DNA of 64,000 nt from Chloroflexota bacterium (GTDB lineage: Bacteria; Chloroflexota; Anaerolineae; Anaerolineales; Villigracilaceae), in the NCBI GenBank assembly GCA_016191845.1, contig JACPVF010000015.1, positions 62,001-126,000 on the forward strand, written 5' to 3'. This document shows, in pieces, positions 1 to 38,545 of this stretch. The notes beneath the pieces were generated by a model, which ran no database searches, was not told the DNA's origin, and was given only the letters and a program-made list of their open reading frames with translations. The position numbers and the translations under genes are program-made. How positions within the stretch are numbered: the first letter of the stretch is position 1; every line of letters starts with the position of its first letter.

Positions 1-90
1 GGTGACCACCTTTTCGGGCAGGGGAATAAAGTTGTAAGGTGCGTGGGCAGTGCGATTCTCATCCACTTTGGGTTGCACAGGGATCGTCAT
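1..90 (-). CDS. Type III CRISPR RAMP protein, TIGR03986-like (N-terminus only)
   Basis: Only the first 30 codons lie in the window; the gene runs off its left edge. The start ATG (90-88) overlaps the TGA of csx19 as ATGA, so it is the next gene of the same operon. The visible N-terminus contains APYNFIPLPEKVV, which I recognise as the opening motif of the TIGR03986 family of CRISPR RAMP proteins, usual companions of Csx10 and Csx19 in type III-D loci. It would be a Cas7-like backbone subunit of the crRNA-guided complex. The family call rests on this short motif and the gene order only. Confidence 0.7.
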   Translation of the reverse strand, partial: MTIPVQPKVDENRTAHAPYNFIPLPEKVVT

Positions 91-5789: not shown

Positions 5790-5827
5790 ATCCGCTCCTT
5801 TCAAAGAAGGTTAACTGTATTGGCTGA

Positions 5828-7956: not shown

Positions 7957-8040
7957 GCCATCATTGTATGCAAATAAAAGAGGAAATGCAAACGGGGCAG
8001 GCTGTGAAAAAAATCGCATGGAAGCGATTACCGTTCGCAA

Positions 8041-14200: not shown

Positions 14201-15672
14201 TCAATGCCTTCGAACATCTCGCGCATGGAAGTCCCCGCTGGCCTGCCTCTGTTTAGAGGATTGAAACACGCAGTCAGCGACCTGCTGGGTACCGCATGCG
14301 GTAAGTAGTCCCCGCTGGCCTGCCTCTGTTTAGAGGATTGAAACTTGAATGCGTGAGTCACCGATCCACTCTGGGGTAGTTGTCCCCGCTGGCCTGCCTC
14401 TGTTTAGAGGATTGAAACCTGGGGCCTTCGCGGCCGCGGGCGACAGACTCACCGAGTCCCCGCTGGCCTGCCTCTGTTTAGAGGATTGAAACTCCACATG
14501 ATTGCGCAAGGCAATCTCGGGAAGACGAGTCCCCGCTGGCCTGCCTCTGTTTAGAGGATTGAAACCAGGGCTTCCGGCGTCATCTTGGCAGATGTAGACT
14601 CCTGTCCCCGCTGGCCTGCCTCTGTTTAGAGGATTGAAACTCGTCGGGGTGGCCGAGGTGCTGGCGGGCGTGAAGGCGTCCCCGCTGGCCTGCCTCTGTT
14701 TAGAGGATTGAAACGGGTTGTTCGGGTTGAATGCGGTGGATGCGTACCCGAGTCCCCGCTGGCCTGCCTCTGTTTAGAGGATTGAAACCGCCCCCCCACC
14801 TCTGACAAAGGGAACTCTGGGCCTGGTCCCCGCTGGCCTGCCTCTGTTTAGAGGATTGAAACTAGTTGGATACGATTTTGGGGATCCCTTTGAGGATCCC
14901 GTCCCCGCTGGCCTGCCTCTGTTTAGAGGATTGAAACAACAGGGTCCGGGCGTGAAGAGTAATACTCACGCTCGTCCCCGCTGGCCTGCCTCTGTTTAGA
15001 GGATTGAAACTCGTTGGCTTGACGCCGCCCGCGTTGAATACTTTCCACGTCCCCGCTGGCCTGCCTCTGTTTAGAGGATTGAAACTTTTCGAAATCCACA
15101 TCCCAGTCATTGGCGATGTGATGTCCCCGCTGGCCTGCCTCTGTTTAGAGGATTGAAACTAGCAACCTCCAATCAGCACTGCAGGTGAAGATATTTGTCC
15201 CCGCTGGCCTGCCTCTGTTTAGAGGATTGAAACTATTGAGGCAGAGTGTATTTGCCGCTGGCAAGTCTGTAGGTCCCCGCTGGCCTGCCTCTGTTTAGAG
15301 GATTGAAACGAGCCGAAGTCGGCACGGCGGTAGGGATGGGGGTGGCGTCCCCGCTGGCCTGCCTCTGTTTAGAGGATTGAAACTTACTTCAAGTCCGATG
15401 TTCTGGTCTTGGATGACTTGTCCCCGCTGGCCTGCCTCTGTTTAGAGGATTGAAACTCTTGGCACTCGCGCTGCTTATACCCCTTTTCCAGGATGTCCCC
15501 GCTGGCCTGCCTCTGTTTAGAGGATTGAAACCAGGATAGCCGTTCTTGGTCAGAAGGCTGTTGAGGTCGTCCCCGCTGGCCTGCCTCTGTTTAGAGGATT
15601 GAAACTGGCTCAGTACCGCCATATTGTTCTTCTTCGTCACGTCCCCGCTGGCCTGCCTCTGTTTAGAGGATT
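8234..15672 (+). CRISPR. CRISPR array 1: 100 repeats, 99 spacers
   Basis: I counted 99 complete 37-base repeats plus a terminal truncated one. The repeat starts GTCCCCGCTGGCC, has the palindrome CCTCTGTTTAGAGG at positions 16-29 and ends ATTGAAAC. The first unit is 8234-8270; the last starts at 15641 and diverges after 32 bases, marking the old (distal) end. Unit spacing is 72-79 bases, so spacers are about 35-42 bases, mostly 37-39. The leader-proximal end is at 8234. Apart from the terminal unit the repeats look identical by eye. The repeat shares its ATTGAAAC end and stem position with array 2. Reading frames through the array are artefacts of the repeat. No cas6 gene is seen in the window. 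Confidence 0.98.
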
Positions 15673-16101
15673 TTTTCGGTTCTTCATCGTAGTAAACCTT
15701 CGGCTTACCGTCATTCTTTTGATGTGCCTTGACATGGTATCTTCCATTTTTGTCCTTCCTGATTTTCGTCAGAAAAAAGAGGGACTAATCATACTGGGGG
15801 CCCTTTTATAGTTGTGTAACAATGAATCTGAGGTTTTTATGTATCCAATTCCACTTAACTTGGATTATTTTTGTCCATTGCGTCGTAATTCTTCACTGTT
15901 GCAGTGGCTACATGCCGTGTAGAAAACACTCTCCTGAATTTCAGGAGAGTGTTTTTCTTTCAGCGCTTTACTTTTTTGCTTCTTCGCTCTCTAAAAAAGT
16001 AGGAAATAAATAAACAGTCGTAGAGGAGGCTTCCATGGAAGTAATGAAAATATGCGGTCTCGCGGTTGCCTTTCCTTTCCGGGAGGTGACCTAAGGAAAA
16101 C
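15673..16101. other. Array 1 trailer and upstream region of the sigma factor gene
   Basis: No convincing gene is found here. After the truncated last repeat the sequence is A/T-rich and contains one strong bidirectional terminator (15923-15955). The last ~140 bases must hold the promoter of the sigma factor gene, but I see no standard -35/-10 pair. Two short plus-strand reading frames (15599-15811 and 15822-16013) lack ribosome binding sites and are cysteine-rich or hydrophobic without pattern, so they are not called. Confidence 0.5.
15923..15955. terminator. Strong bidirectional terminator after array 1
   Basis: A perfect 16-base inverted repeat (15923-15938 with 15940-15955, core ACACTCTCCTGAA) flanked by A and T runs on both sides. 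It would end the array transcript and also stop minus-strand transcription from entering the array. Confidence 0.85.
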
Positions 16102-16764
16102 ATGAAGGAGATTTCTGTGACGCAACCCCAGAACCTGGATGAACTCCTCCGACGGACTGGCGGCGGCGATTTTCAAGCCTTCAATGACCTCTACAATATC
16201 GCAAGCGGGCCGCTGCTGGCTTACATAAGAAATCACTTTTCTTCCACTCTCTCTCTGGAGGATATGGAAGATGTAGTTCATGGTGTGCTTGTGCGACTAC
16301 CTCAAATTGCAGCAGCTTATCGAGGTGAACACAATGCATCCAGTGCATGGAAATGGCTATATACGCTTGTCCGTAACGATGCTTTAAAAATGGTCAATGT
16401 ATATCAAAGATATTCGCAAGATGATAACACCCCACACGACAACGACATGGATGTTGCTCCGTCCGTCTCTAAAAGAAACCTTTTCCAAGGTGAGCTGCAA
16501 GAGAAGGGCGGTCGTTTCGTGGAGAATGAAGCTTTGAACATGGCCATCCTCGATCAGGTGTTACGGTATGTCAGGACCCTTCCTGCTCAAGACCGAAAAG
16601 TGTTTTACCTACGGTTTGTACAAAACTACACTCTGGAGCAGGTAGGAAGGGAAATAGGCAGGACAAAGGTTAGAGTTAAGCAAATCGTAGATGGCTTAGT
16701 ACAGAGGATCCAGCAGGAACTTGGAGTTGACCTTTCTCGGGATGGCTGGTCCTTATCTGATTGA
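16102..16764 (+). CDS. ECF-like RNA polymerase sigma factor
   Basis: A 220-residue sigma-70 family protein with only regions 2 and 4. Region 2 spans about residues 27-98 (FNDLYNIASGPLLAYIR, then SLEDMEDVVHGVLVRLPQ) and region 4 about 150-210, with the helix-turn-helix NYTLEQVGREIGRTKVRVKQ. The linker (about 105-140) is acidic and longer than usual. Two starts are possible: ATG 16102, or GTG 16117, which has an ideal AAGGAG six bases upstream; the second would shorten the protein by five residues. It is the first gene after array 1 and points toward the VWA-to-Cas2 operon, which it may control. No anti-sigma gene is adjacent. Confidence 0.8.
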   Translation: MKEISVTQPQNLDELLRRTGGGDFQAFNDLYNIASGPLLAYIRNHFSSTLSLEDMEDVVHGVLVRLPQIAAAYRGEHNASSAWKWLYTLVRNDALKMVNVYQRYSQDDNTPHDNDMDVAPSVSKRNLFQGELQEKGGRFVENEALNMAILDQVLRYVRTLPAQDRKVFYLRFVQNYTLEQVGREIGRTKVRVKQIVDGLVQRIQQELGVDLSRDGWSLSD

Positions 16765-17426: not shown

Positions 17427-19745
17427 ATGAAAAAGATGCATTTACCTTTCCTACTTGTATTAGTTGTAATGATATTGTTTTTACCTTCCAGCGCAGGTGC
17501 CGGGCCGGCAAAAAAAGTGACCGTGGTTCTGCTTTTGGATAACTCAGGCAGCATGAACGTGAGCGACCCGCAGGACCTGCGCTTTACCGGGGCCAGGCTT
17601 TTCTCTACGTTGTTGGATAAAAGTGATGCTTTGGGATTGGTGGTCTTCTCCACACAGGCAGAAGCTTTAACAGAGCATCTAATGATATTGAATGCTCAAT
17701 CGGACAGACAAAACCTGCTGGCCAGCCTGGATAGTATTCCTTCCCCCCAGGGATACACCGATATCAAGGCGGCGCTGGAGCAGGCCAGGAGATTACTGCC
17801 ACAATTTGTGGAGCCTGAGGAAAAAGTGGTTCTTGTCCTTCTCACCGATGGTCAGCCCGAAATCCCGGTTCCATACCCGCAATATGAGCAGGAGGCCTTG
17901 GACCTGGCAAAAAGCCTGCACGTACCAGTCATGGCAATCGCGTTGACATCCTCTGCACAGACTCCATTTCTGGATCGCATGACCCAGGTGACAGGCGGAC
18001 AGGTTTATCCAGCCCGTGATGCTTCAGACCTGATGCGAATTTACCTGCAAGTGTTGGGGGAGATCAAGGACCGCACAGTGATTGGAGGGCGGGAATTTCA
18101 AGCTGAAACCTCCCTGAACATCGATCCTGCACTCGCCCCTTACCTTTATTCTGCAACTTTCGTGATTACAGGGGAGTCGTCAGCGCAGGTTCAACCTGTG
18201 GGTCCTCAGGCTGATATTTTGTCCTCGAGTGTATTTGAGGATGGCGATCCACGGTTTATCGTGCGCACGCTGGAAAACCCGCTGGGCGGGAGGTACACCT
18301 TCCGCTTAGCGGGTGGGGGCAAACACCAAGTGTGGGTCATCTTGTATTCAAAATTGCGTGCAAAAATTGTACAACCTGGTTCTTTCTTTCCTGAAGGGCA
18401 AGATCTGCCGATTATGGTCAATATGCTGGAAGAAACGCCTACCGGACAATTTATCAAAATCATCGGTCAAGCTGAGTTTACCGCGCTCATAACCCGTCCG
18501 GACGGCAGTCAAGAAAGCCTGGATCGCTTTTATGATGACGGAACTCACGGGGATAGGGTGGCTGGAGATGGAGACTATACGCGTGTATACCCCAATACAG
18601 GCTTGCAAGGGGAATATCAGATTGAAGTCCAGGGATGGAAAGGTGCAATTCCTGTTCAGGCAGAGGGACAGGTTGAAATCATACCTTTCCCTGAAATTCA
18701 GGTGATAGCTCCTGTGCCTGACTCAAAAATTCGTTCGGATGTAGTGAAGTTTGTCGTTCATCTGTCAACAGATCCGCCGGATTCATTGGACCAAGGGTAC
18801 CTTGTTGCTCATCTGACCAATCCCTTGGGTCAGGAAGAGGAGATCGTACTCAAACCCGACAAAACTGGTTATGTAGGGACATATAAACCAGCTGTAGGCG
18901 GAAAGATTCGTGCGCACATCGAAACACACCAAGCGCGTTATCGGGGCGTGGAGTTTCAGACGGCTCTGGATTATGAGTTCGACCTGGAATTGATCCACTT
19001 TGCGGATGTGCAGGTCGAGAAAATGCAGACGTTGACCGGCTGTCTTAAAGAAGGCAGGGCTGTCGATGTTTCTCTGACTCTTAAGGCAGACACTGCTGAG
19101 TCCCTGCATCTATCGGCATCAACTGGTTGGGAGGTTTTTCCATCCCAGATCCAGGCCAGCCCAGGCAGTCAACTTGTTACTGTCCAGCTTCGTTCAATTC
19201 AGCCAGGGGAGAATGATCAGGACGAACTGGTTACGCTGTATGTAAATGGGGACAACACCCTAATGATTCGGCCCGCAGCGGAAATCCAGGTGGTTGTGCA
19301 AAACCCAGGCCTGCTGGTGCGTTGTCAGATTCCCATCCGCTGGGGCAGCGGTGTATTGCTGGTGCTCCTTGCCGGGACAATTGGCTTTCGTCGCATTCAA
19401 GCAGCCAGACGGCCTGTACGGATTAGTGGCACGCTCCGATATGGCCCGCGGCTGGATGATCACGCTCATCTGGTTGAAGTGGACCTGACCGCTTTACAAA
19501 AGCACAGGATCTCCATCGGTAGTAGTGAGACCTGTGCTGTGCGCATTGTGGCTGGCAGACTCGATCCTGAACATGCCCGCCTGGTGATGGAAGAGCAGGC
19601 AGACAGACATGTGGTCATCCTGGAACCCCTGGGTCAGGTCCAGAAGGGATATGGATGGCAAACGACACGCTTTGCTTTAGGGCACGCACAGATATTCCGT
19701 ATGGGCACACTTGAATTCCAGTATCTCAGTGATAGCGGTGAGTGA
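17427..19745 (+). CDS. Secreted/membrane VWA protein with C-terminal FHA-like domain
   Basis: A 772-residue protein: signal peptide (about 1-26), then a von Willebrand A domain (about 31-215) with a complete MIDAS metal site (D38-x-S40-x-S42, T111, D141), Ig-like beta-rich segments (about 220-630), one membrane helix near 637-655 and a cytoplasmic tail whose last ~100 residues look like an FHA domain (RISIGSSETCAVRI and DPEHARL). FHA domains bind phosphothreonine. The ATG at 17427 gives a clean signal peptide and has AGGAAA upstream; a TTG at 17394 is less likely. The next gene starts 11 bases after its stop with a shared ribosome binding site. By topology it could anchor the downstream tubulin-like protein to the membrane; that is inference. 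Confidence 0.75.
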   Translation: MKKMHLPFLLVLVVMILFLPSSAGAGPAKKVTVVLLLDNSGSMNVSDPQDLRFTGARLFSTLLDKSDALGLVVFSTQAEALTEHLMILNAQSDRQNLLASLDSIPSPQGYTDIKAALEQARRLLPQFVEPEEKVVLVLLTDGQPEIPVPYPQYEQEALDLAKSLHVPVMAIALTSSAQTPFLDRMTQVTGGQVYPARDASDLMRIYLQVLGEIKDRTVIGGREFQAETSLNIDPALAPYLYSATFVITGESSAQVQPVGPQADILSSSVFEDGDPRFIVRTLENPLGGRYTFRLAGGGKHQVWVILYSKLRAKIVQPGSFFPEGQDLPIMVNMLEETPTGQFIKIIGQAEFTALITRPDGSQESLDRFYDDGTHGDRVAGDGDYTRVYPNTGLQGEYQIEVQGWKGAIPVQAEGQVEIIPFPEIQVIAPVPDSKIRSDVVKFVVHLSTDPPDSLDQGYLVAHLTNPLGQEEEIVLKPDKTGYVGTYKPAVGGKIRAHIETHQARYRGVEFQTALDYEFDLELIHFADVQVEKMQTLTGCLKEGRAVDVSLTLKADTAESLHLSASTGWEVFPSQIQASPGSQLVTVQLRSIQPGENDQDELVTLYVNGDNTLMIRPAAEIQVVVQNPGLLVRCQIPIRWGSGVLLVLLAGTIGFRRIQAARRPVRISGTLRYGPRLDDHAHLVEVDLTALQKHRISIGSSETCAVRIVAGRLDPEHARLVMEEQADRHVVILEPLGQVQKGYGWQTTRFALGHAQIFRMGTLEFQYLSDSGE

Positions 19746-19756
19746 AAGGAGAACCC

Positions 19757-22612
19757 ATGCAAACCGAGATCCGATTTGAACCCACGTTGTTTGTGTTCCT
19801 GGGGACCAGCTCAGCACAGATCGGCTGGCGCCTCAAGGATCTGGTCCGCCAGGCCTATGGCGATGTTCCCATTCTGCGCTTTTTATGGGTGGATGCAGAT
19901 AGTACGGTTGACCCGGCCATTGCCTCCTGGTTCAGCCCCGTGGAGCGGGTGGAACTGACCGGCTTCAATGGTGACGCTGTGTTGGCCAACCTTGGAAATT
20001 TTCCCCACATTCGTAGCTGGTGGCCGCGGGAATCACGCCTGAAAGCCGGATACATCAACCGCGGCGCTGGTCAAATGCGGCCAGTGGGACGGCTGGCGCT
20101 GTTTCGCATGTTCAATGACCGTAATGCGGGGCCGGCCTTCATCGATAAACTGCGCCTGGCCTGTGAGTCCATCCAGCAGATTGAGAACATCGATGCCACG
20201 GAGCGAATGAGCAATGATGGCATGCACTTTGTGGTGGAACGCGGCAGCGTGCGGGTGGTGATCCTGTTTTCCACCTGTGGCGGGACAGGAAGTTCAATGG
20301 CCTTTGACCTGGCGTACCTGTGCCGCCATCAGTTGCGGGAAGCCAACCCCACCGTCATGTCTGTGGCTCTGCTGCCATCGATCATGGACAAGGCTATCAA
20401 GAACGAGACCCCTACTCAGAGAGAACGCATCCGTGCCAATACCTACGCCTGGTTCAAGGAAAACAATCACCTAATCGAGAATCCGCGTTGGAACGTCTCC
20501 TACCCGGAAGGCGCGCCTTTGAATGTTCAAACGCCGCCATTCGATATGAACTTTGTGGTGGAGATCGGCAACCAGGCGGGCAACCGCCTGAATTCCGAGG
20601 ATGACATCTTCAGCATGATCGCCTCTGCTATTTTCCTGGACACGGGTTCCTCCATTGGTGGAGCGATCCGCGGCTTCAATGCCAATGTCAGCGTTCTCCT
20701 GGATGAATTTCAAGGACGACGGCGTTCCTACAGTTCCATGGCGGCAGCCACCCTGATCTATCCAGCGCAGAAGATCCTTTCCTATGCCAGCGCGCGTTTG
20801 GGGCAGAGCATGATCCGTCAGGCCTGCCTTGCCCTTCCAGATCGCAGGCAGGTCACTGAGGCTGCCTCGGCACTCCTGGGGCGTTTGCGCCTGCGCGATG
20901 ATCAACTTTTGGAAGACCTGCTGAACGGGCAGCAGGTGGGAGCCTTGAATGTGCCTGGCATTCGCAAATCGGAGGACATTGAGGAGATTCGCCGCCTGCT
21001 GGCCTTGCAGGAGGAAGGCAATGTTCGCGATCGTGAATACCTGAAAAATCATATAGGAGTGCAGGCGGGTCAGGTAACGCGTTCGGTGGAGGCGGGACTG
21101 GATCAGGAAATTCTGGCCATCGTCCGTGAACGTGGTGTCAGTTTTGCCCAGGCTGTTCTGGCAGAGTTGACGGCCGAGAACAGTACCCTCGAAAACGTAT
21201 CCGAGTCGACCTGCTCTCTGTATGGGCTGAAGGCGCGCCTGACCCAAAAGGGCGTCAGTGAATTTCAACTGGCACAGGCCGAACAGGAATATACGCGGGC
21301 GCGTGAACATTTGCGGGCCATGGCTGGAGACCTGTTGCGCACTGCCCAGAAGACCTTCTTCCACAAATCCTGGCAGGAAAGCCTCAACCGTGTGCGCACG
21401 GACTGTCTGACCTGGATGGGAGAGACCAATCAGCGTACGCTTCAACTGCATGCCCAGCGGCAGGCGGCCCATCTATATGAGCAGCTCGGGGACCACGTGC
21501 GTAAGCTGAAGGCGATCCTGGCTTCCATCCAGCAGACGCTGGAACGGGTCCACGAAAGGCTGGAAGAGTCCGCCCAATGCCAGACGAAGTCCTCCTCAGC
21601 AGATCACGGCATTTATGAGCTGACCATCGAAGCGGTCGGCCCTGATTACATCCAGGCCTATTATCAGGCCAGCGCTGCCGTGCTGGATCCGATGGCGGTT
21701 TATCAGACCTATGGTCAGCAGCTTCTAACGCAATCTCTCCAGCAGCTGGCCTTGTGGGGCGAAGCGGACTGGATGGATGGCCTGAAAACGCATGCACGCA
21801 CATACTTTGCAAATGAGGTGCAAAATACCTCGCTGTTGCAGGCCATGACCCAGTTTTATGGACGTCAGGCCTCCCAGAAGATCGAGACCCAATTCGACCG
21901 CCTGGTGCGATACTGCCATCCCTTCTGGCAATATGACGCCAACAGCGGGATCCAGGGTCAGGAGGGCAAGAGCATCATCGGTCTGGAGGATGAACATAGC
22001 GACCTGCTCCCGCCCAAATATCGTGAGGATCCGCAGTACGAGATCAAGTCCACCGGCTTCAAACACCGCATTGATTTTGCCCGCGTCCAGCATGGACTGC
22101 CCTCCTTTCTATTACGCGACATGCAGGATTACAAGGCCTACTATGACGTCAAACGCAAGGGGTTGGATCCCCTGCATGTCTTTCCTGAGGCATTTGTGGC
22201 GGATGAGGTCATCCCCGAGGAAAAGATCGAGGCCCGCAACATTTTCGCTTGTGCAGCGGCTTTCGGATATGTGATCCAGGTGGGTTCCTTCTACTATTTC
22301 GACCCTCAGAAGGAATATGCCAGCCGTAATATCCGGCCTCCGCGTGAAAACCGCCTGGATCAGGGGCGGGAGAAAGCCGAGGATGCCTTTGTGCAGCGTG
22401 ATGATTTGCTGCGCGAGGCCGAACAGTTGATCGAACGTGACATTGTCAACATGGGCAATCAGGCTGCCATCCGCCTCCTGGAGGAATGTGTGGCGGAATA
22501 TAAACAGACGCTGTCTCGTTTGGCGCCAGATGGTGATTTGCGCAAGCAAATGGAGGATGAGATCCGCGCTCTGAACGCGAAGCAGCAGCAGCTTGGCAAG
22601 CTGTGGGTGTGA
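19757..22612 (+). CDS. Tubulin-like (Tubulin_2 family) large protein
   Basis: A 951-residue protein whose N-terminal ~450 residues resemble the tubulin-like family PF13809. LFVFLGTSSAQIGWRLKD (residues 11-28) matches the first nucleotide-binding loop and CGGTGSS (174-180) is the tubulin/FtsZ signature loop that binds GTP phosphates. MSVALLPSIMD follows as the expected next strand. The remaining ~500 residues are mainly helical, with coiled-coil stretches around 520-620 and a short beta segment near 835-850. GTP-dependent polymerisation is expected from the family but unproven here. The ATG at 19757 has AAAGGAG five bases upstream. It lies between the VWA gene and a large unknown gene in the operon that ends with cas1 and cas2. 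Confidence 0.75.
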   Translation: MQTEIRFEPTLFVFLGTSSAQIGWRLKDLVRQAYGDVPILRFLWVDADSTVDPAIASWFSPVERVELTGFNGDAVLANLGNFPHIRSWWPRESRLKAGYINRGAGQMRPVGRLALFRMFNDRNAGPAFIDKLRLACESIQQIENIDATERMSNDGMHFVVERGSVRVVILFSTCGGTGSSMAFDLAYLCRHQLREANPTVMSVALLPSIMDKAIKNETPTQRERIRANTYAWFKENNHLIENPRWNVSYPEGAPLNVQTPPFDMNFVVEIGNQAGNRLNSEDDIFSMIASAIFLDTGSSIGGAIRGFNANVSVLLDEFQGRRRSYSSMAAATLIYPAQKILSYASARLGQSMIRQACLALPDRRQVTEAASALLGRLRLRDDQLLEDLLNGQQVGALNVPGIRKSEDIEEIRRLLALQEEGNVRDREYLKNHIGVQAGQVTRSVEAGLDQEILAIVRERGVSFAQAVLAELTAENSTLENVSESTCSLYGLKARLTQKGVSEFQLAQAEQEYTRAREHLRAMAGDLLRTAQKTFFHKSWQESLNRVRTDCLTWMGETNQRTLQLHAQRQAAHLYEQLGDHVRKLKAILASIQQTLERVHERLEESAQCQTKSSSADHGIYELTIEAVGPDYIQAYYQASAAVLDPMAVYQTYGQQLLTQSLQQLALWGEADWMDGLKTHARTYFANEVQNTSLLQAMTQFYGRQASQKIETQFDRLVRYCHPFWQYDANSGIQGQEGKSIIGLEDEHSDLLPPKYREDPQYEIKSTGFKHRIDFARVQHGLPSFLLRDMQDYKAYYDVKRKGLDPLHVFPEAFVADEVIPEEKIEARNIFACAAAFGYVIQVGSFYYFDPQKEYASRNIRPPRENRLDQGREKAEDAFVQRDDLLREAEQLIERDIVNMGNQAAIRLLEECVAEYKQTLSRLAPDGDLRKQMEDEIRALNAKQQQLGKLWV

Positions 22613-22625
22613 ATTGGAGGTTGCC

Positions 22626-24854
22626 ATGACCGTCTCCACCCTGTCTTGCACCCCATCCGTGGTAATCACCCTGGGTAAATCCCTGATGCCGGTCGCCATG
22701 GAAGTCAAACGGCTTCTCCTGCGCGAGGATACCCAGCGCATGGTGACCACCGCTTTTCTCCATCCGCCTCATTGTGGCATGGAATGGTCTCCGGGCTGGA
22801 TCTCCCAGGAGAATCCCGGCATTGATCCAAACTTGTCCCCCTGCTCCTGGAAACAGGTATTCGAACAGGCACAGGCGGCGGACAAGGTGTTGAAAGAAGG
22901 CTTGCAGGCCTCCCTGCACGACCTGCGGTCCCATGGACGATTGATGGAAGCCGGACTGGGAGAGAAGGCCTTCCTGCCCCTGGATATTTTCCTGCTGGCG
23001 GATCTGTCTGAAGCGGAGGCGGCTGCGCTGTTGGTGGTGATCCCGCAGTTACAATCCATTTTGAAAGAGGAACCCTATGCCAGACTCCATTTTCTCTTCA
23101 ATCTGGCCTCTTTCCAGGAAGATGCTCTTCAGAATGCCAATCAGTTCTTCACGTTGAGCTGCCTGGTGGAGATGCTGGATGGGAGTGAGCGCTTCCCCAA
23201 ATTGGACCCCCGTCCGCAGATCTACCTGTTCGACCGCTATAAGGAGGGTACCTGGGAAGCGCAGGATGCTGCTGAGGTACATGTGCTCCTAGAAAATTTC
23301 CTGCTGGCGCTGCTGTCGGGAGGGCTGGCCCAGCACTTGGCTCATGCTATCCCTGCTTTGGAGGCGGAAGAACAACACGCGTATTTCAGCAGCGCTGGAG
23401 CCACCAGCCTGATCTTCGATCCCAATCAGCTGCAGGTGGAATGCGTCAGACGCCTTGCGTTGGAATTGCTTGAATCAGAATTCGACGTGAGCCTTCTGCC
23501 CGATCCCGGACCCCTGGAGGCAGCGGTTCAGGATTTCATGGACCAGCAGGGCCGTCTTCAGGGGTGGCGCGAGTCCCTTTGCCATGGGACAGGTTTCCAT
23601 CCGCTTCCCGCTCAAAACCAGTTGAAATTTCATATTGCAGACCTGCGCTTTGAAGATGTTCCTCCTGAAGAATGGGCCAGGCGGATCCGGGAGTATGCGC
23701 GAAAGTATGAAAAACAGGCCTGGCCGGCTTGCTGTGCGCAGGTAGATGAGAATGCTCGCAGCTTGCAATCAAGTTTTTTGGAGCGGCTGGAGAATTTCAT
23801 GGATCGTCTCCCGCATTCGGTACGCTTTTATCCGGGTGGGGTGCAGGCGGCGCGCGAAGTGATACAGGTTATTCAAAAGGAAATTCACGAACAGATCCAC
23901 CATCCCCAAGAGTATATTTCAGAAGCTGCCTGGCAGGAGCAGATGGAGGCCAATCTGGTGACTCTCGAGCATGCGCTGGCTGCCCTGCCTGAGCCTCCCA
24001 AATGGGTAAAACGCCTGCCTACTTTTGCAAAGAAACCTGTGGTCCAGTTATTCAATCTGGTCTGCCTGCGGCGTGAACTTCAGACCTTGCTGGAACTGCG
24101 CCAGAAAAGTATGAGCCTTTTGGAGCGCAAACTGGCTGCGCGAATGGAGCAGTTCCTGCACCAAAAAAACACGGAACTGGAAGGCGCCGTCGTGGAAGTC
24201 TTGAAACGACAGGACCAGCAACTCACCCGTCTGCAAAGGAATCTGTCGGGCATGAAACGACATTTTCTGGAGCGGACGGATGATCCCCGTCCATCTTCCT
24301 GTCCCTTTCGAATTCAGGTCGTGGATGAGTCTGTGTTGGCGTGGGCCTATTACCAGGGACAACGTCCCCCCGAGGGATTTCTTCACAACCTTCTGGAAGA
24401 TCATGCCTTTTTGCAAGGTTGGCAAAAGGTGTCTTCTAAGGACCTGATGCAAAGACTCAAGGCCTTTTGCGAAGAAGTTTATCGCCCCCTACAAAGCCTG
24501 GATATTGGACAGATTCTTCAGCATCGTGCGCAAAAAGACATCCGCGACTTGGCCGATGCGCTGCGGCAGGGAACGGTTCCTCTCCTGCGGCCAGATTTCG
24601 ACCAGACCGGCAGCAATCCTGCTTTTCAATTGCGCTTTTTCCTGGCGGGGAATGCAATTGCTTCCTCAATGTATGAGGAGCTGCGTCATGATCTGCCGGT
24701 ATGGCAGGCGATTGAGAGTGGGAGTGCTTCTCAAATCTTGTGCTGCCGGGTTCGATTGCTGATTCCCGGTTCTTCTTTGGCATTGATTCTGGAGCGTGGA
24801 CGCCCCGCGTATAAGGCATTGGATAAGGAACAACGCAGGGAAAATTTCCTATGA
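22626..24854 (+). CDS. Large protein of unknown function, partner of the tubulin-like protein
   Basis: I do not recognise this 742-residue protein. The first ~290 residues alternate strands and helices (SVVITLGKSLMPVAMEV at 11-27, PLDIFLLADLSEAEAAALLV near 115-134, ARLHFLFNLASFQ near 150), reminiscent of a degenerate tubulin or Rossmann fold that lacks the glycine-rich GTP loop. The rest is helical, with a long amphipathic stretch around 450-560 and many Leu/Gln. There are no signal peptide or membrane helices. GGAGG sits five bases before the ATG, 13 bases after the tubulin-like stop, and its own stop overlaps the RNase H start as ATGA. A non-catalytic partner of the tubulin-like protein is a reasonable guess. 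Confidence 0.5.
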   Translation: MTVSTLSCTPSVVITLGKSLMPVAMEVKRLLLREDTQRMVTTAFLHPPHCGMEWSPGWISQENPGIDPNLSPCSWKQVFEQAQAADKVLKEGLQASLHDLRSHGRLMEAGLGEKAFLPLDIFLLADLSEAEAAALLVVIPQLQSILKEEPYARLHFLFNLASFQEDALQNANQFFTLSCLVEMLDGSERFPKLDPRPQIYLFDRYKEGTWEAQDAAEVHVLLENFLLALLSGGLAQHLAHAIPALEAEEQHAYFSSAGATSLIFDPNQLQVECVRRLALELLESEFDVSLLPDPGPLEAAVQDFMDQQGRLQGWRESLCHGTGFHPLPAQNQLKFHIADLRFEDVPPEEWARRIREYARKYEKQAWPACCAQVDENARSLQSSFLERLENFMDRLPHSVRFYPGGVQAAREVIQVIQKEIHEQIHHPQEYISEAAWQEQMEANLVTLEHALAALPEPPKWVKRLPTFAKKPVVQLFNLVCLRRELQTLLELRQKSMSLLERKLAARMEQFLHQKNTELEGAVVEVLKRQDQQLTRLQRNLSGMKRHFLERTDDPRPSSCPFRIQVVDESVLAWAYYQGQRPPEGFLHNLLEDHAFLQGWQKVSSKDLMQRLKAFCEEVYRPLQSLDIGQILQHRAQKDIRDLADALRQGTVPLLRPDFDQTGSNPAFQLRFFLAGNAIASSMYEELRHDLPVWQAIESGSASQILCCRVRLLIPGSSLALILERGRPAYKALDKEQRRENFL

Positions 24855-25288
24855 ACCGCCTTTTTCTGCACCCCACCCTGCTTCTGGTTTATACCGATGG
24901 CGCCATCCGACCGGAACGCGGTTTGAGCGGCCTGGCTGCCATCGTTCGTGGGGAAGGGGGAAGGATTTTGCACTGGAAATGCCGCCAAGCCGGGCGTATG
25001 ACCTGCAATGAGGCTGAATATGCCGCTGCCATTATGGCATTGGAATTCATGCATTCCCTGCGGCCGCAGGAAATCCGTTTGTATAGTGACAGCCAGGTAC
25101 TGGTTCAACAGATGAGTGGGCTGGCGGCAGCCCGTGCACCTGCGTTGCGTCAGGCGCAGATTCGCCTCCGTAGTTTGGTGCTTGGGTATCAGCGGGTCAG
25201 TTTTCACCATATTCCTCGCGAACAAAATCGCCTGGCAGACGCTCTGGCCAATGAAGTTGTGGATGGGGATGGAAGGGAGTGGACATGA
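24851..25288 (+). CDS. Ribonuclease HI
   Basis: A 145-residue RNase HI that keeps all four catalytic acids: D16 (YTDGA), E56 (NEAEYAA), D80 (YSDSQ) and D130 (ADALANE). It should cut the RNA strand of RNA-DNA hybrids using two metal ions. It lacks an N-terminal hybrid-binding domain. Its ATG overlaps the TGA of the preceding gene and its own TGA overlaps the RemA-like start, so it is translationally linked to both. Next to a reverse transcriptase and cas1 it most likely clears RNA from hybrids made during spacer acquisition, rather than serving general replication. Confidence 0.88.
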   Translation: MNRLFLHPTLLLVYTDGAIRPERGLSGLAAIVRGEGGRILHWKCRQAGRMTCNEAEYAAAIMALEFMHSLRPQEIRLYSDSQVLVQQMSGLAAARAPALRQAQIRLRSLVLGYQRVSFHHIPREQNRLADALANEVVDGDGREWT

Positions 25289-25524
25289 ACAAGCTGGCTG
25301 AGGTTGGTCTGGGAGGCAGAGTGGCCTCAGAACGAGTGGTGGCTGTTGGCCGTTACACTTCGATGCCCATCCGTCGTGCGGTCCGCCTGGCTCGCAAGGA
25401 GGGGCGGCTGATCGATCTAACCTTTGGGCGTGCCTGTCGCTGGGTGTTCTTTTTGGACAGCGGGCATTTGGTGTTGGGCGCCTTAGATTCCTTATCTCTA
25501 CATGAAGAAAGCGAGGAACAATGA
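25285..25524 (+). CDS. RemA-like DUF370 protein
   Basis: A 79-residue protein matching the RemA/DUF370 family along its length: EVGLGGRVASERVVAV (5-20), the P-I-R-R-A segment near 27-31, GRLIDLTFGRACRWVFF (40-56) and SGHLVLGAL (58-66). RemA of Bacillus is a ring-forming DNA-binding activator of biofilm genes; the conserved arginine and DxTxGR segments are retained here. The ATG at 25285 overlaps the RNase H stop and has AAGGGAG upstream; the stop overlaps the RT start. Its presence between RNase H and the reverse transcriptase is unexpected and suggests it binds DNA or hybrid in spacer acquisition, or regulates the operon. Confidence 0.8.
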   Translation: MNKLAEVGLGGRVASERVVAVGRYTSMPIRRAVRLARKEGRLIDLTFGRACRWVFFLDSGHLVLGALDSLSLHEESEEQ

Positions 25525-26804
25525 CAACCCGATTATTGGAATTGATTGCCGCTCCGGAGAATCTGCTTTCTGCTTGGCGTTCTGTACGCGGTAACATCCC
25601 CAAATACCGCCGCAGCCGCGCCTCCGGACCGGACGGCGTTTCATTGGCCGATTTTGAACAGGATCTCACCACGCAACTCAAAGTCTTGCGGGATATGCTC
25701 CTGAAAGGCAGATACCAGCCTTCACCGCCGGCTTATTTCGACATTCCCAAAAAGAATGGAGCCAAACGAACCCTGGCCATCCTTTCGGTACAGGACCGTG
25801 TCGCGCAACGGGCGGCACAACAAGTACTTGAGCCGCTCTGGGAACCCGATTTCCTGCCTTGCAGTTTCGGCTTCCGTCCCGGGATTTCCCTGGAACGGGC
25901 GGTGGCGCATGTACAAAATCTGCGCAGGAATCACAATGGCTGGGTAGTGGATGGGGACATTGCCGCTTGTTTTGACACGCTGGACCATGATATCCTGATG
26001 TCTTTCGTTCAGCACAAGATCAAGGACCAGCGCACGGTGGCCTTGTTGCAGAATTGGCTGGATGTGGGGGTGATGCAGGTCGGCCCTCCGCAAAACCTGG
26101 ATATGCAGGCGGCAACCCGCGTAGAAAATGCCAAGGGCATTGCCCGCCAGGGTCTGAATTGGGTGTTGGAGAGTCTGATGGACCAGACAGATCCTTATGG
26201 CGCCTATGAGTATTACAGTGACGATCCTGTCCATCCTTCTGCCCAGGTTGATGACTCGACTTTCCCGGATCGCGGAGCATTGGTGTCGCAGATGCGCAAA
26301 GGTACGCTCCGCCGCTTGATGGCCAGCGGTGTGATGATGGGGGTCGGTTTCGTGCGGGCGCGTGCTGGCGGCGTCTTTTCGAAGGCAGGCACTGCGTTGA
26401 GGACAGTTGCATCCTCTCCCCTGGCGCGCCGCTTGCTCAAGCGCAATGCGTTGACGGTCGGCGGCTTTGCTGGCCTGGCTGCCGCCGCTGCTGTAACGGC
26501 TTATCTCCTGAATCGGAAGGCTGGCGCCGCGCCGCTGGGTGTCCTGCAGGGCAGCCCGCTTTCTCCCCTGTTGGCCAACGTATACCTGCATCCCTTTGAT
26601 GTGCATTTGTCTCGGACGGGATACCAGCTTGCACGCTTTGCAGATGATTGGGTGGTCCTTTGCCCGAGCCGTGAACAGGCAGAAAATGCTTATAACGATG
26701 CTGTGCGTTCGCTGGCCCGCCTGCACCTGAAGATTAATACGGACAAGACAAAAATCCTTGCACCTGACCAGCCGCTGGAATGGCTGGGCGCTGTGATTCG
26801 TTAG
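25521..26804 (+). CDS. CRISPR-associated group II intron-like reverse transcriptase with large insertion
   Basis: A 427-residue reverse transcriptase. The fingers-palm motifs are intact: GPDGVSLADFE (36-46), IPKKNGAKRTLAI (75-87), FGFRPG (116-121), catalytic D146 in DGDIAACFDTLDHD, VLQGSPLSPLLANVYL (341-356), FADD at 373-376, INTDKTKI (405-412) and WLGAVIR at the very end. Between motif A and QGSP there are about 185 residues instead of roughly 50. The extra part holds an acidic Tyr-rich stretch (about 225-250), a glycine-rich stretch and a hydrophobic segment at 310-330 that could cross or touch the membrane. There is no thumb, maturase or endonuclease domain, and no Cas1 fusion; cas1 follows 31 bases on. 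Expected role: copying RNA into DNA for new spacers. Confidence 0.88.
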   Translation: MTTRLLELIAAPENLLSAWRSVRGNIPKYRRSRASGPDGVSLADFEQDLTTQLKVLRDMLLKGRYQPSPPAYFDIPKKNGAKRTLAILSVQDRVAQRAAQQVLEPLWEPDFLPCSFGFRPGISLERAVAHVQNLRRNHNGWVVDGDIAACFDTLDHDILMSFVQHKIKDQRTVALLQNWLDVGVMQVGPPQNLDMQAATRVENAKGIARQGLNWVLESLMDQTDPYGAYEYYSDDPVHPSAQVDDSTFPDRGALVSQMRKGTLRRLMASGVMMGVGFVRARAGGVFSKAGTALRTVASSPLARRLLKRNALTVGGFAGLAAAAAVTAYLLNRKAGAAPLGVLQGSPLSPLLANVYLHPFDVHLSRTGYQLARFADDWVVLCPSREQAENAYNDAVRSLARLHLKINTDKTKILAPDQPLEWLGAVIR

Positions 26805-26835
26805 GACCGGTTGCGTTTTATTGAAAGGAGCCATG

Positions 26836-27897
26836 ATGTCTACCCTGTATCTTACCCAGCCTGGTGCGCAACTGCACAAGGAACATGACCGTCTGTTGGT
26901 GAAACGTGAGGGGGAGGTGCTGGAATCCATTCCGTTGATCAAGGTCGACCAGGTGGTATTGATGGGCCGTGGGGTGGGTATTACCACGGCTGCATTGCAT
27001 GCCCTGACCCGCGGCGGCGTGGACATTGTCTACCTTTCAGGAGCAGGACGGTATATCTCAAGGGTGGTAGGCCCCGAGCACAAGAATGGCCGTCTCCGTC
27101 ATCAGCAGTCCCTGGCTGCGGCAGATCCGAACTTTTCCTTGCGGGTGGCACAGAATATCGTGCAGGGGAAGGTCATCAATCAGCGTGCTGTGGTACGCCG
27201 TCATGCGGAGGGTGCTCCTTGGGCGGGACGGGCTCTATCAGCTATGGATGTAATGCTCAAACAGGTTCAATCGGCGCGGGATGCGGATCAACTACGGGGC
27301 ATGGAAGGTCAGGCCGCCAAGGAATATTTTGGGCTATTCCGTCGTATGTTGAAGCCGCCGTCTGAGGGCAATTCCTGGGGGTTTGATCGTCGTGCTTACT
27401 ATCCGCCTCCCGATCCGATCAACGCGCTGTTGTCCTTTTTGTATTCTCTGATCCTGCGTGATATGACCACCGCCTGCGAACTGATCGGCCTGGATCCCTA
27501 TCTGGGCTTTTTCCACGTGATCGATTATGGCCGTCCATCAATGGCGTTGGATTTGATGGAAGAGTTTCGCCCGATTGTGGCGGATTCGATCGTGCTGGAA
27601 GCCGTCAATCGTCCCTATATTTCTTTGGAGGATTTCGAACAGGTGGACCTGACGGAGAAGGAGGCAGAACGGGATGAATTGGAGGCTCCGCGCGCCAGCC
27701 TGCAGGCTGTCTACTTGGCCGCCAGCGGTCGGGAGAAAATCATTGCCATGTATGAAAACCGCGTCAACGATGAAAGCATGTTTACCTTCCAGGACCAGAA
27801 GGTTTCCTACCGCACCATTTATCAGCTGCAGGCGCAGGCCATGGCGCGCATGATCCTGGGCGAGGCAGATCGATATGAGCCCTTTACGGTGCGCTGA
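26836..27897 (+). CDS. cas1: CRISPR integrase Cas1
   Basis: A 353-residue Cas1. The N-terminal beta domain spans about 1-85 and the helical catalytic domain follows with metal ligands E157 (GMEGQAAKEYF), H227 (FFHVIDYGRP) and E242 (LMEEFRPIV). It joins with Cas2 to insert prespacers at the leader end of the arrays. I chose the second of two adjacent ATGs (26836) because AAAGGAG lies five bases before it; the first would be only two bases away. The C-terminal ~70 residues, after a charged stretch (DLTEKEAERDELEA), match the helical end seen in RT-associated Cas1 proteins. It is separate from the reverse transcriptase, unlike RT-Cas1 fusions. Confidence 0.95.
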   Translation: MSTLYLTQPGAQLHKEHDRLLVKREGEVLESIPLIKVDQVVLMGRGVGITTAALHALTRGGVDIVYLSGAGRYISRVVGPEHKNGRLRHQQSLAAADPNFSLRVAQNIVQGKVINQRAVVRRHAEGAPWAGRALSAMDVMLKQVQSARDADQLRGMEGQAAKEYFGLFRRMLKPPSEGNSWGFDRRAYYPPPDPINALLSFLYSLILRDMTTACELIGLDPYLGFFHVIDYGRPSMALDLMEEFRPIVADSIVLEAVNRPYISLEDFEQVDLTEKEAERDELEAPRASLQAVYLAASGREKIIAMYENRVNDESMFTFQDQKVSYRTIYQLQAQAMARMILGEADRYEPFTVR

Positions 27898-27903
27898 TCT
27901 GAG

Positions 27904-28197
27904 ATGGGAGGGCAGGTGAACACCCAGTTTCTGGTCGTCAGTTACGATATTTCCTCAAGCCGACGCCGTCGTAAGGTAATGAAGGCACTCGAAGGCTACG
28001 GGGAGCGAGTCCAATATAGCGTGTTCGAGTGTAATCTTGCGCCGAAGAAGATAGAAGAAATGCGAAGGCACCTGGCAAAAATCATCTCGCCCAAAGACAG
28101 CCTGCGCATCTATTTTCTAAGCGCCGACGACGTCAAACGCATCCTGCGGATGGGCGATCCGCGCGTGGTAACGGATCGAGTCTTTATCATGCAATAG
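27904..28197 (+). CDS. cas2: Cas2
   Basis: A small ferredoxin-fold Cas2 of up to 97 residues, with the usual FLVVSYDISSSRRRRKVMKA start, the VQYSVFEC strand and a C-terminal RVFIMQ strand. It is the structural dimer at the centre of the Cas1-Cas2 integrase. Two starts are possible: ATG 27904, or GTG 27916 with GGAGG four bases upstream, which would remove four residues. It starts seven bases after the cas1 stop and is the last gene of the long plus-strand operon; the WYL copy 2 gene ends five bases beyond it on the opposite strand. Confidence 0.93.
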   Translation: MGGQVNTQFLVVSYDISSSRRRRKVMKALEGYGERVQYSVFECNLAPKKIEEMRRHLAKIISPKDSLRIYFLSADDVKRILRMGDPRVVTDRVFIMQ

Positions 28198-28202
28198 CGG
28201 AA

Positions 28203-29393
28203 TCAATACGTACCGGGGATCTCCATCCTGTCGAGGCGGAAAGTGCGCTGGCCGCGGCGGGACTGGCACCAGGCAATGACGTAGGTCTGCCCGTTGCGCT
28301 CTTCGATGGAGAGCGGGGTGATACGCCGCGGCTCGGGGGCATAACCCGGGGCGTGATAGAGCATGTCCAAGCCCTGCTGCAACTGGAGATATTTTCTCAG
28401 CACTTGCAGTTTGGGCACGGAAGGTCCAAGCGGCTGTAACAGGCTCGGTTTGGTGAAGTGGGTGCGTTTCGGCTGCTCCTCAGGCGAGGTTTCTTCGTGG
28501 GTCTCCAGGCAGATGCCGCGCCGCACAAGCATCTTCATGAGGCTGACGGCTTGTCTTTCATCTACCATCACATGGCGCGGGGAGATCACCCGGTGGATGT
28601 GGGTGCGAAAGTTGGATTGCCGTCGCAGCGCAGACAGATCCTCGGGGTGCGAGAACTCAAGGGTAACACCGCGAAGAATGCGCAGGCTGGGCTGGCCCAG
28701 GAGTTGGGCGCGGATGCCGCCCGGCAAAGGGCCACCCAGGCCAAGCTCCAGCAGGTCGACCCATGCCTGCGGGTCCCCGTTTGCATATTGCAAGGCGCGT
28801 CGGTTGAGGGGATACCTGCCTGGGGAGGCGGGACGCAGGAACCTCTCCAACTCCCAGAGCAGGTCGATATGCTGGGGAAGAGGGACCAGGAACTGGTCGC
28901 CGTCGAGGTGACAGGTTTCGGGCGCTTTGGGAGTGGGCAGGTCCCCTTCGCCTTTGAGGAAGTAGCGTCCCCAGACAGTCAGCCTGTCTTCTTTCACCAG
29001 GCCCAAAGCCTGCAACTGGCTGAGGAATTTCTTGTCCTTGGCGGTCAGAGATTTGTCGTATTTCAACTTCCAGAGCAGTTTCTTGCGGAATTGGCGGGTC
29101 TTGCGATCTTTGGGAGCGTTTTGCCAGGCGTCGATCAGGTCGAAGGTCTGTTCCTCGATGTCCTTGTTCAGCCAACGGCGGGCGAAACCAGTGACGCGCA
29201 GGCGGCCATCGAAGGCATCCAACAGGCCTGCCTCCTTGCACAGGGCGATCCAGAAGGACAGGCGTGGCTGGAGGGTGACCTTCTGGCGTTGGAACTCGCG
29301 CCAGATCTGTCTTTGCGGGATGCCGCGCCGCAGGGCATTCAGCAGGGTCAGGATGAGATAGAATGCGGGGTATGACTCAGATGGTGCTGTCAC
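28203..29393 (-). CDS. WYL-domain-like CRISPR-locus regulator, copy 2
   Basis: A 396-residue paralogue of the protein at 6772-7956. The first ~190 residues and the last ~45 (ITPLSIEERNGQTYVIAWC, RTFRLDRME) are almost the same in both; the central ~140 residues differ strongly. The start is GTG at 29393, supported by AAGGAG eight bases upstream; no ATG lies in a suitable place. It converges on cas2 and is divergent from array 2, the same layout as copy 1 with array 1. The pattern suggests that one regulator accompanies each leader. Known WYL proteins act as ligand-controlled transcription regulators or as CRISPR accessory factors. Confidence 0.7.
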   Translation of the reverse strand: MTAPSESYPAFYLILTLLNALRRGIPQRQIWREFQRQKVTLQPRLSFWIALCKEAGLLDAFDGRLRVTGFARRWLNKDIEEQTFDLIDAWQNAPKDRKTRQFRKKLLWKLKYDKSLTAKDKKFLSQLQALGLVKEDRLTVWGRYFLKGEGDLPTPKAPETCHLDGDQFLVPLPQHIDLLWELERFLRPASPGRYPLNRRALQYANGDPQAWVDLLELGLGGPLPGGIRAQLLGQPSLRILRGVTLEFSHPEDLSALRRQSNFRTHIHRVISPRHVMVDERQAVSLMKMLVRRGICLETHEETSPEEQPKRTHFTKPSLLQPLGPSVPKLQVLRKYLQLQQGLDMLYHAPGYAPEPRRITPLSIEERNGQTYVIAWCQSRRGQRTFRLDRMEIPGTY

Positions 29394-29492
29394 AGATGCA
29401 ACTCCTTGCGAATCATTGTACGCATATCGACAGGGAGATGCAAATGTGTGAAGCTGTGCAAAAAATCGTATGCAAGCGATTACCGTTCGCAA

Positions 29493-38410: not shown

Positions 38411-38545
38411 TTTTTTGCGCTGGAACTATTCTTTGTAGTGGATTATGCTATTGTAGGGCATTTAGCAGGATAAGAAATGCTCACTCTCACAGTCTGGTTA
38501 ATGATTAAGTTGGACCATATGAAAGTCACTTATAACACCACTAAA

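What the first reader, a model, noticed from the sequence alone, without database searches (positions are those of the whole stretch)
17427..28197. Eight-gene operon joins a VWA/tubulin-like membrane module to an RT-Cas1-Cas2 acquisition module
The genes for VWA-FHA protein, tubulin-like protein, unknown 742-residue protein, RNase HI, RemA-like protein, reverse transcriptase, Cas1 and Cas2 follow each other on one strand. Gaps are 11 and 13 bases or ATGA overlaps through the RT, then 31 and 6 bases. The last five fit spacer acquisition from RNA; the first three look like a polymer-forming, membrane-anchored apparatus. I know of no described CRISPR adaptation system with a tubulin homologue. 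Inference: acquisition may be spatially organised, for example at the membrane where phage RNA or DNA enters.
Basis: partly seen in the sequence, partly recalled or inferred. Interest (0 to 1): 0.95.

Follow-up and report, generated by a model that had tools for sequence, protein, structure and literature searches.

The report
Tubulin-linked CRISPR spacer-acquisition operon
In some Chloroflexota bacteria, genes for a pair of tubulin-like proteins and a membrane protein sit in one conserved operon with the enzymes that probably write new virus memories from RNA, which suggests, but does not prove, that this step is organised on a scaffold at the membrane.

Summary
It is not a one-off: tubulin and RT lie in one block, in the same order, in 8 genomes (this one included) of three families, and rearranged in a ninth. 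Eleven CRISPR-linked tubulins form one clade (100/100), while 23 of 26 sampled Tubulin_2 places show no cas1 nearby. The 'unknown 742-residue protein' is a degenerate tubulin paralogue. The effector nearby is type III-D.

New here: of 18 related operons without tubulin (RNase H-RT-Cas1-Cas2), 13 carry an SPFH-like protein, usually in the RNase H-RT gap; no locus has both. Both are scaffold-type families, so I favour a scaffold that gathers RT, Cas1 and Cas2; this is inference.

Against: the two deepest tubulins of the clade sit beside arrays or cmr genes without RT-cas1; some operons lack both scaffolds; a vWA/tubulin association with CRISPR was already named in one sentence (PMC10910872). Both AlphaFold models were unusable.

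The parts
16102..16764 (+). sigma-70/ECF-like sigma factor upstream of the operon
   Evidence: TIGR02937 3.4e-18; homologue in the same place in L016-L019 and L021; not in the other two loci that reach upstream of VWA, L020 and L072
16947..17306 (+). small HTH-like gene between sigma and VWA (HTH by eye, no family test)
   Evidence: homologue in the same place in L016-L019 at 44-56% identity; not found in L021
16812..16849 (+). terminator-like hairpin between sigma gene and HTH-like gene
   Evidence: 17 pairs then TATATTTTAA; the total number of such sites is not above chance
17427..19745 (+). VWA protein: signal-like N-terminus, VWA with intact MIDAS (DNSGS, T, D), hydrophobic stretch near residue 635, FHA-like C-terminus
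   Evidence: PF00092 1.1e-13; motifs, invariant in 5 rows; KD 2.32 at residue 6, 1.52 at 635; PF16697 in 5 of 5 members
19757..22612 (+). tubulin-like GTPase of the Tubulin_2/FtsZl1 family, G-box GGTGS intact; the most conserved protein of the operon
   Evidence: PF13809 2.5e-47; GGTGS at residue 175; mean pairwise identity 0.69 in 8 genomes, dN/dS 0.03 in one pair
22626..24854 (+). second, degenerate tubulin-like protein (742 aa) without a GGTGS motif
   Evidence: hhalign against the tubulin profile Prob 94-96 versus at most 0.8 for controls; 72 and 80 bits to the tubulins of L091 versus at most 1.9 for shuffles
24851..25288 (+). RNase H (RVT_3), catalytic D/E/D/D motifs present
   Evidence: PF13456 4.7e-23; motifs
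25285..25524 (+). RemA-like DNA-binding protein (DUF370/PF04025)
   Evidence: PF04025 3.1e-15; PDB 7bm2 1.3e-10
25521..26804 (+). group II-like reverse transcriptase with a ~150-residue insert (about residues 190-337) between motif A (144) and motif B (343); FADD intact
   Evidence: RVT_1 5.7e-31; alignment of 11 RTs; motifs
26836..27897 (+). Cas1, catalytic E, H, D motifs present
   Evidence: PF01867 5.4e-85; motifs
27904..28197 (+). Cas2
   Evidence: PF09827 2.1e-23
28203..29492 (-). WYL-domain regulator beside the leader of array 2
   Evidence: PF13280 1.8e-12; homologue after cas2 in L017, L018 and L068-L070, fragment in L019
29686..32508 (+). CRISPR array 2, 38 repeats
8234..15677 (+). 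CRISPR array 1, 100 repeats (the last one degenerate), 99 different spacers of 35-42 nt
6772..8040 (-). WYL paralogue beside the leader of array 1; the stretches before the two arrays are 88% identical over 269 bp
87..5804 (-). type III-D effector genes (Csx19, Cas7, Csx10/Cas5, Cas7, Cas10 with HD and GGDD)

Best explanation
A CRISPR adaptation operon, beside type III-D genes, whose RT-Cas1-Cas2 enzymes are gathered on a membrane-linked protein scaffold. Shown: a conserved block VWA - tubulin GTPase - degenerate tubulin partner - RNase H - RemA-like - RT - Cas1 - Cas2 with catalytic motifs present. Inferred: (1) RT copies RNA into cDNA, RNase H removes the RNA, Cas1-Cas2 inserts the product, and the RemA-like protein bends or wraps the leader DNA; (2) the GTP-binding tubulin and its partner form a polymer or ring held at the membrane by the VWA protein through its cytoplasmic FHA-like end; (3) the polymer brings RT and Cas1 together, or gates them upon an envelope signal. 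SPFH-like proteins would do the scaffold job in related operons without tubulin.
For: Tubulin and RT in one block, in the same order, in 8 genomes of three families, plus a rearranged form with an RT without insert in a ninth, G497 (L095). Eleven CRISPR-linked tubulins form one clade, 100/100. Distances of TUB track RT and Cas1 (r 0.96 each). TUB under strong purifying selection (dN/dS 0.03 in the G119-G086 pair). The third protein is a tubulin paralogue, giving a pair. VWA MIDAS, RT, RNase H and Cas1 motifs present. Scaffold swap: SPFH-like gene in 13 of 18 tubulin-less RNase H-RT loci and 0 of 9 tubulin-RT loci. A RemA relative forms rings that wrap DNA (PMC8481266, passages).
Against: Two deep members of the clade lie beside cmr genes (G312) or arrays (G275) without RT/cas1 next to the triad, so the link may be to CRISPR loci in general. 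G155 and 17 loci of other families have RNase H-RT-Cas1-Cas2 without tubulin, and G071 shows 1.2 kb upstream of RNase H without a recognised third gene, so the module is not needed everywhere. 5 of 18 tubulin-less loci show neither scaffold, two of them on short contigs. In G119 only a C-terminal piece of VWA is left. The RT insert occurs with and without tubulin and its hydrophobic stretch is no clear membrane helix. Polymerisation, location and RNA origin of spacers are untested; array 1 found no phage match. Structure models unusable.
Confidence: 0.4

Rival explanations
1. The VWA-tubulin pair module is a separate envelope or stress-response machine (FtsZl1-type membrane remodelling) that CRISPR loci use as an effector or alarm; it shares transcription with the adaptation genes but takes no part in spacer acquisition.
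For: The two deepest clade members sit beside cmr genes (L074) or arrays (L073/L096) without RT-cas1; G227 has cas6 and a Csx15-like gene beside the triad and no cas1 found in the genome, 88% complete; the module also occurs without cas genes (L091); sigma and HTH-like genes upstream suggest induced expression.
Against: In 8 of 8 loci with tubulin, RNase H and RT the module is followed on the same strand by RNase H-RemA-RT with gaps under 0.4 kb or overlaps, not by effector genes; SPFH-like genes lie close to this position in tubulin-less adaptation operons.
Confidence: 0.33
2. The module is a regulator: VWA senses the envelope, the FHA-like end and tubulin pair relay it, and the outcome is control of cas expression or Cas1 activity, without spatial organisation.
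For: VWA with intact MIDAS plus FHA-like end in one protein; sigma, HTH-like and WYL genes around the operon.
Against: Two large tubulin-family proteins make an unlikely signal relay (judgement); no kinase among the eight genes.
Confidence: 0.14
3. Hitch-hiking: a defence-island neighbour kept in place by transfer of the block as a unit, with no functional link.
For: Patchy distribution: P0002 matches in 12 of 150 family genomes, 8 of them (this one included, one only a fragment) of the close type; no match in the same-genus genome G014.
Against: Same order across three families with tubulin identity down to 0.50; ATGA overlap at the joint in this window; a second, rearranged association in G497; dN/dS 0.03.
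Confidence: 0.08
4. The tubulin pair acts on DNA, for example moving the array or captured DNA (TubZ-like), with RemA as the DNA adaptor.
For: RemA-like DNA-binding gene in the same operon.
Against: RemA lies between cas1 and cas2, away from tubulin, in G497 (L095) and is present in tubulin-less G155 (L103); the family is Tubulin_2/FtsZl1, not TubZ.
Confidence: 0.05

Closest known systems
FtsZl1 (Tubulin_2, PF13809) - vWA operons, Makarova and Koonin 2010 (PMC2875224, passages read)
   Same: large tubulin-superfamily protein encoded beside a VWA protein, most of which keep the MIDAS motif; predicted membrane complexes
   Different: The main text has no occurrence of CRISPR; here the module is joined by gene order to RNase H-RemA-RT-Cas1-Cas2 and has a second, degenerate tubulin
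RT-Cas1-Cas2 adaptation modules of type III CRISPR: Toro 2017 (PMC5541045, passages), Silas 2017 (PMC5513706, term search only)
   Same: group II-like RT next to Cas1 and Cas2; the Chloroflexi clade RT-CRISPR-9 also has RT separate from Cas1
   Different: No occurrence of tubulin or RNase H in either main text; Toro states that no complete operons were available for clade 9; membership of this RT in clade 9 was not tested because its sequences are not held
CRISPR-linked vWA systems with tubulin domain proteins, and adaptation modules with RNaseH, Altae-Tran 2023 (PMC10910872, passages)
   Same: states that vWA systems associate with CRISPR loci alongside tubulin domain proteins (UAS-7, 87, 91, 100, 129, 139, 149, 155) and adaptation modules with RNaseH (UAS-3, 45); the Fig. 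6B legend lists HflK and vWA
   Different: one sentence and a legend in what I saw; whether any UAS is this operon could not be checked (supplements not open); no second tubulin, SPFH alternative or mechanism in those passages
RNase H-(SPFH-like)-RT-Cas1-Cas2 operons of other Chloroflexota (found here)
   Same: RNase H, RT, Cas1, Cas2 on one strand; the RT also with a long insert in the five read in full
   Different: SPFH/Band_7-like protein or nothing in place of the tubulin module; no RemA hit in 17 of 18

Membership tests
Tubulin_2 / FtsZl1 | PF13809 match above the curated cut-off | tested here: met
   162.3 bits, cut-off 27
Tubulin_2 / FtsZl1 | GTP-binding glycine box | tested here: met
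   GGTGS at residue 175, invariant in 7 rows
Tubulin_2 / FtsZl1 | neighbouring VWA gene with MIDAS | tested here: met
   DNSGS at 38, GYTD at 109, LLTDG at 138
Tubulin_2 / FtsZl1 | GTP hydrolysis and filament formation | not testable with these tools
   needs biochemistry; no solved relative by sequence at E 0.1
742-aa protein as a tubulin-family member | profile similarity to tubulin-like proteins beyond controls | tested here: met
   hhalign Prob 94-96 versus at most 0.8 for eight control families; 72 and 80 bits to the two L091 tubulins, but 17 bits or less to five other tubulins
742-aa protein as a tubulin-family member | GTP-binding glycine box | tested here: not met
   no GGTGS in the printed sequence; hence called degenerate
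742-aa protein as a tubulin-family member | tubulin fold | tested here: inconclusive
   AlphaFold mean pLDDT 38.6 with 3 sequences
RT-associated CRISPR adaptation module | RT with active-site motifs next to cas1 and cas2 | tested here: met
RT-associated CRISPR adaptation module | CRISPR arrays and type III effector close by | tested here: met
   arrays 8234-15677 and 29686-32508; type III-D genes 87-5804
RT-associated CRISPR adaptation module | spacers taken from RNA | not testable with these tools
   needs experiments; array 1 against 50,697 phage records gave no match
RT-CRISPR-9 clade (Chloroflexi) | RT gene separate from cas1 | tested here: met
   separate ORFs, 31-base gap
RT-CRISPR-9 clade (Chloroflexi) | phylogenetic placement with the published members | not tested
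   published sequences not held
SPFH/Band_7-like partner in related operons | Band_7 profile match | tested here: inconclusive
   12 homologous proteins in the RNase H-RT gap; Band_7 at E below 1e-3 in 6 of 12, above the curated cut-off in 4 of 12

The most novel reading that the evidence does not exclude
RT-based CRISPR adaptation in Chloroflexota is built on exchangeable protein scaffolds, either a GTP-driven tubulin pair tied to the membrane by a VWA receptor or an SPFH-type assembly, so that copying RNA into spacers happens only in a dedicated, signal-gated place in the cell.
Probability: 0.28. Interest if true: 0.92.

Novelty: new variant of a known kind. Interest (0 to 1): 0.74.

Why it matters
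How CRISPR adaptation finds and handles its substrate in the cell, above all RNA substrate in type III systems, is poorly understood. A conserved operon that ties RT, RNase H, Cas1 and Cas2 to a tubulin pair with a membrane VWA protein, with a second scaffold-type family in related operons, makes the question of spatially organised or gated acquisition directly testable by gene removal and imaging. It also suggests a specific context and role for FtsZl1-vWA modules, whose function the 2010 paper could only predict.

Tried and rejected
AlphaFold of the 742-aa protein and of the RT gave mean pLDDT 38.6 and 37.0 with three-row alignments; not used, and no fold search was run.

Idea that the RT insert is tied to the tubulin module: it looked so inside the family (9 full-length insert RTs; 4 cas1-linked RTs without insert, in G107, G077, G047 and G007, which show no P0002 match), but the phylum sample showed long inserts in tubulin-less operons (five RTs read in full) and a tubulin operon whose RT has no insert (G497, L095). 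Rejected.

Idea that the insert is a membrane helix: highest 19-residue KD 1.59-1.83 in five operon RTs against 1.23-1.33 in their Cas1; 1.27-2.16 over 11 RTs; but up to 1.73 in Cas1 of other loci. Left open.

The effector was first read as type III-B from Pfam names (my script labels Cmr_a, Cmr3, Cmr_c); corrected to III-D.

Spacers of array 1 against phages (array 2 was not searched there), and the RT alignment against viral contigs: nothing. All spacers against the fetched loci: only 17-base matches, plus hits of the long stretch before the degenerate last repeat of array 2 (first ten lines shown).

Rows and places left out: from the tree L094, the G346 fragment (L102) and the G076 fragment (L022); L090, L091b and L026 were re-extracted after a frame slip. 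In the phylum RT search 20 of the 21 genomes then without a fetched stretch were fetched; G627, and a second place in G467, were not. The CRISPR label of G227, G275 and G312 rests on neighbours other than RT-cas1 and was given by me before the tree was built.
Full report
WHAT IS THERE. Families are confirmed by Pfam for seven of the eight; the third had no significant hit. Active-site motifs are present: VWA MIDAS, tubulin GGTGS, RNase H D/E/D/D, RT motif A (144), QGSPLSP (343) and FADD (373), Cas1 E/H/D. Two arrays flank the operon: 100 repeats at 8234-15677 and 38 at 29686-32508, with different repeats but stretches before them that are 88% identical over 269 bp. The effector genes at 87-5804 on the other strand are type III-D, with HD and GGDD in Cas10.

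IS IT CONSERVED? Among 150 genomes of the family P0002 matched in 12: this genome, seven others of the close type (65-80% identity, of which G076 is only a fragment with a stop) and four distant ones (26-30%). In G086, G133, G062 and G094 the order is VWA - TUB - U742 - RNase H - RemA - RT - Cas1 - Cas2; G119 has the same up to RT, where the contig ends at the start of cas1, but only a C-terminal piece of VWA. A sigma homologue lies upstream in these five and is missing in the other two loci that reach upstream of VWA, G055 (L020) and G227 (L072); the HTH-like gene is in four of the five. G154, another family, has TUB to Cas2. G346, a third family, has a TUB fragment, a large ORF in the place of U742 that my profile does not recognise, then RNase H, RemA and RT to the contig end. 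So 8 genomes of three families hold tubulin and RT in one block in the same order. In G055 the block is split over two contigs inside U742. G015 and G071 carry RNase H to Cas2 without visible tubulin: the G015 contig ends inside RNase H, while the G071 contig has 1.2 kb upstream of RNase H without a recognised U742. G227, again another family, has VWA-TUB-U742 with RNase H divergent at the contig edge and cas6 and a Csx15-like gene behind it; no cas1 was found in that genome, 88% complete.

BACKGROUND. In 281 Chloroflexota genomes Tubulin_2 gave 26 places in 22 genomes. With a Cas1 profile built from this operon, cas1 was on the fetched stretch for 3 of the 26 (G000, G062, G497); several stretches are cut by contig ends, and one cas1-less stretch (L163) has an array of 6 repeats about 9.5 kb away, while L090 and L171 show three-copy repeats. 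In a tree of 42 tubulin domains the 11 rows that I had labelled CRISPR-linked (nine of the close type plus G275 and G312) form one clade, 100/100. G497 stands apart beside a cas-less tubulin (96/93, a long branch with odd composition); one origin for all 12 is not rejected (p-AU 0.117). In G275 the link is arrays on both sides, in G312 a cas10/cmr3/cmr4 cluster; neither has RT or cas1 next to the triad. Both genomes hold a cas1 elsewhere, and G312 an RT beside it.

THE 'UNKNOWN' THIRD PROTEIN. A profile of nine U742 proteins finds the two tubulins of the cas-less locus L091 at 72 and 80 bits, against at most 1.9 bits for shuffled or reversed sequences; it scores 17 bits or less on five other tubulins and does not recognise the third genes of G497 and G346. 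Profile-profile comparison with the tubulin set gives 94-96% probability over 519-697 columns, against at most 0.8% for eight control families. In L091 a gene matching the VWA profile is followed by two tubulin family members in a row. So the first three genes are VWA, tubulin and degenerate tubulin. U742 has no GGTGS. Its AlphaFold model is too poor to use.

CO-INHERITANCE. Over 8 genomes pairwise distances of TUB correlate with U742, RNase H and RT (0.96 each), over 7 with Cas1 (0.96), over 6 with Cas2 (0.88), over 5 with VWA (0.89), and over 8 with RemA only 0.66. This shows inheritance as a unit, not contact. TUB is the most conserved protein (mean identity 0.69), U742 the least (0.38); dN/dS in the G119-G086 pair is 0.03 for TUB and 0.06-0.13 for the four other genes tested there.

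WIDER VIEW. A phylum search with the RT alignment hit 26 of 400 genomes. Of 20 newly fetched stretches, 17 hold RNase H, RT, Cas1 and Cas2 without tubulin (families f36, f46, f72); three hold RT without Cas1. In the five of these 17 RTs that I read in full there is also a long stretch between the two halves of the RT with a hydrophobic segment. With G155 this makes 18 tubulin-less RNase H-RT loci. Twelve have a homologous protein of about 430-565 residues in the RNase H-RT gap and one more (L129) has it further upstream on the other strand: 13 of 18, against 0 of 9 loci with tubulin and RT. Pfam calls it Band_7/SPFH at E below 1e-3 in 6 of the 12, over the curated cut-off in 4. Five of 18 have neither; two of these are short contigs (L122, L130). 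Two loci (L113, L114) have a VWA gene between cas1 and cas2.

MECHANISM. Shown: gene content, order, conservation, motifs. From the literature: RT-Cas1 systems can take up RNA spacers (starts of abstracts in a listing); RemA of Geobacillus forms rings and wraps DNA (PMC8481266, passages); FtsZl1 proteins are predicted to act in membrane complexes with VWA proteins (PMC2875224, passages). Recalled, from no call: SPFH proteins form membrane-bound cages, and IHF bends leader DNA in E. coli. Inferred: RemA plays the leader-bending part; the tubulin pair is a GTP-driven scaffold tied to the membrane by VWA; the SPFH-like protein is the alternative scaffold. I give this 0.4, because the deep clade members point to a link with CRISPR loci in general rather than with adaptation alone.

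PRIOR WORK. [quoted passage not shown] its Fig. 6B legend lists HflK and vWA. PMC9755687 (passages) reports RNase H-like and DUF370 neighbours of novel Cas1. PMC5541045 (passages) has a Chloroflexi clade RT-CRISPR-9 with RT separate from Cas1 and no complete operon. Searches for tubulin with RT/Cas1/VWA, tubulin-like with CRISPR adaptation, PF13809, DUF370 with CRISPR, FtsZ-like with vWA and Cas1, and SPFH with Cas1 and RT brought up, beyond these, no paper whose listing points to this operon; the other listed papers were not opened, except PMC9871819 (passages), which has no CRISPR. Most subscription papers and all supplements are not covered.

VERDICT. Observation confirmed. Interpretation partly supported. 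A new variant of a known kind: an RT-containing CRISPR adaptation module joined to an FtsZl1-vWA module with a tubulin pair, and a related form with an SPFH-like protein.

Noticed in passing
L112, L114-L120, L127-L129, L131, L103: RNase H-RT-Cas1-Cas2 operons without tubulin carry an SPFH/Band_7-like protein in 13 of 18 loci.
   Followed up: partly
L113:3946-6357 and L114 (3317-3958 region): A VWA gene lies between cas1 and cas2 in these tubulin-less loci.
   Followed up: no
window 6772-8040 and 28203-29492: Two WYL paralogues, each beside the leader side of one array; stretches before the arrays 88% identical.
   Followed up: partly
window 25521-26804, residues about 190-337 of the RT: Long insert between RT motifs A and B, also present in RTs of tubulin-less operons; function unknown.
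   Followed up: partly
L022:18213-18470: Remnant of the tubulin N-terminus in G076; no other operon gene was recognised on the stretch.
   Followed up: no
L158 (G620:C83): A 3518-residue open frame with two Tubulin_2 domains.
   Followed up: no
window 38534-38590, 47033-47089, 58572-58628: Three copies of a 57-nt repeat far from the arrays, 65-77% alike.
   Followed up: no
window 5828-6634: 268-aa protein without a family hit upstream of cas10, with a partial relative (30%) in the same place in L016.
   Followed up: no
L072:12287-12673, L020:6094-6477, L096:2430-2816: Csx15-like gene near the tubulin loci: profile match in L072; L020 and L096 by eye only.
   Followed up: partly
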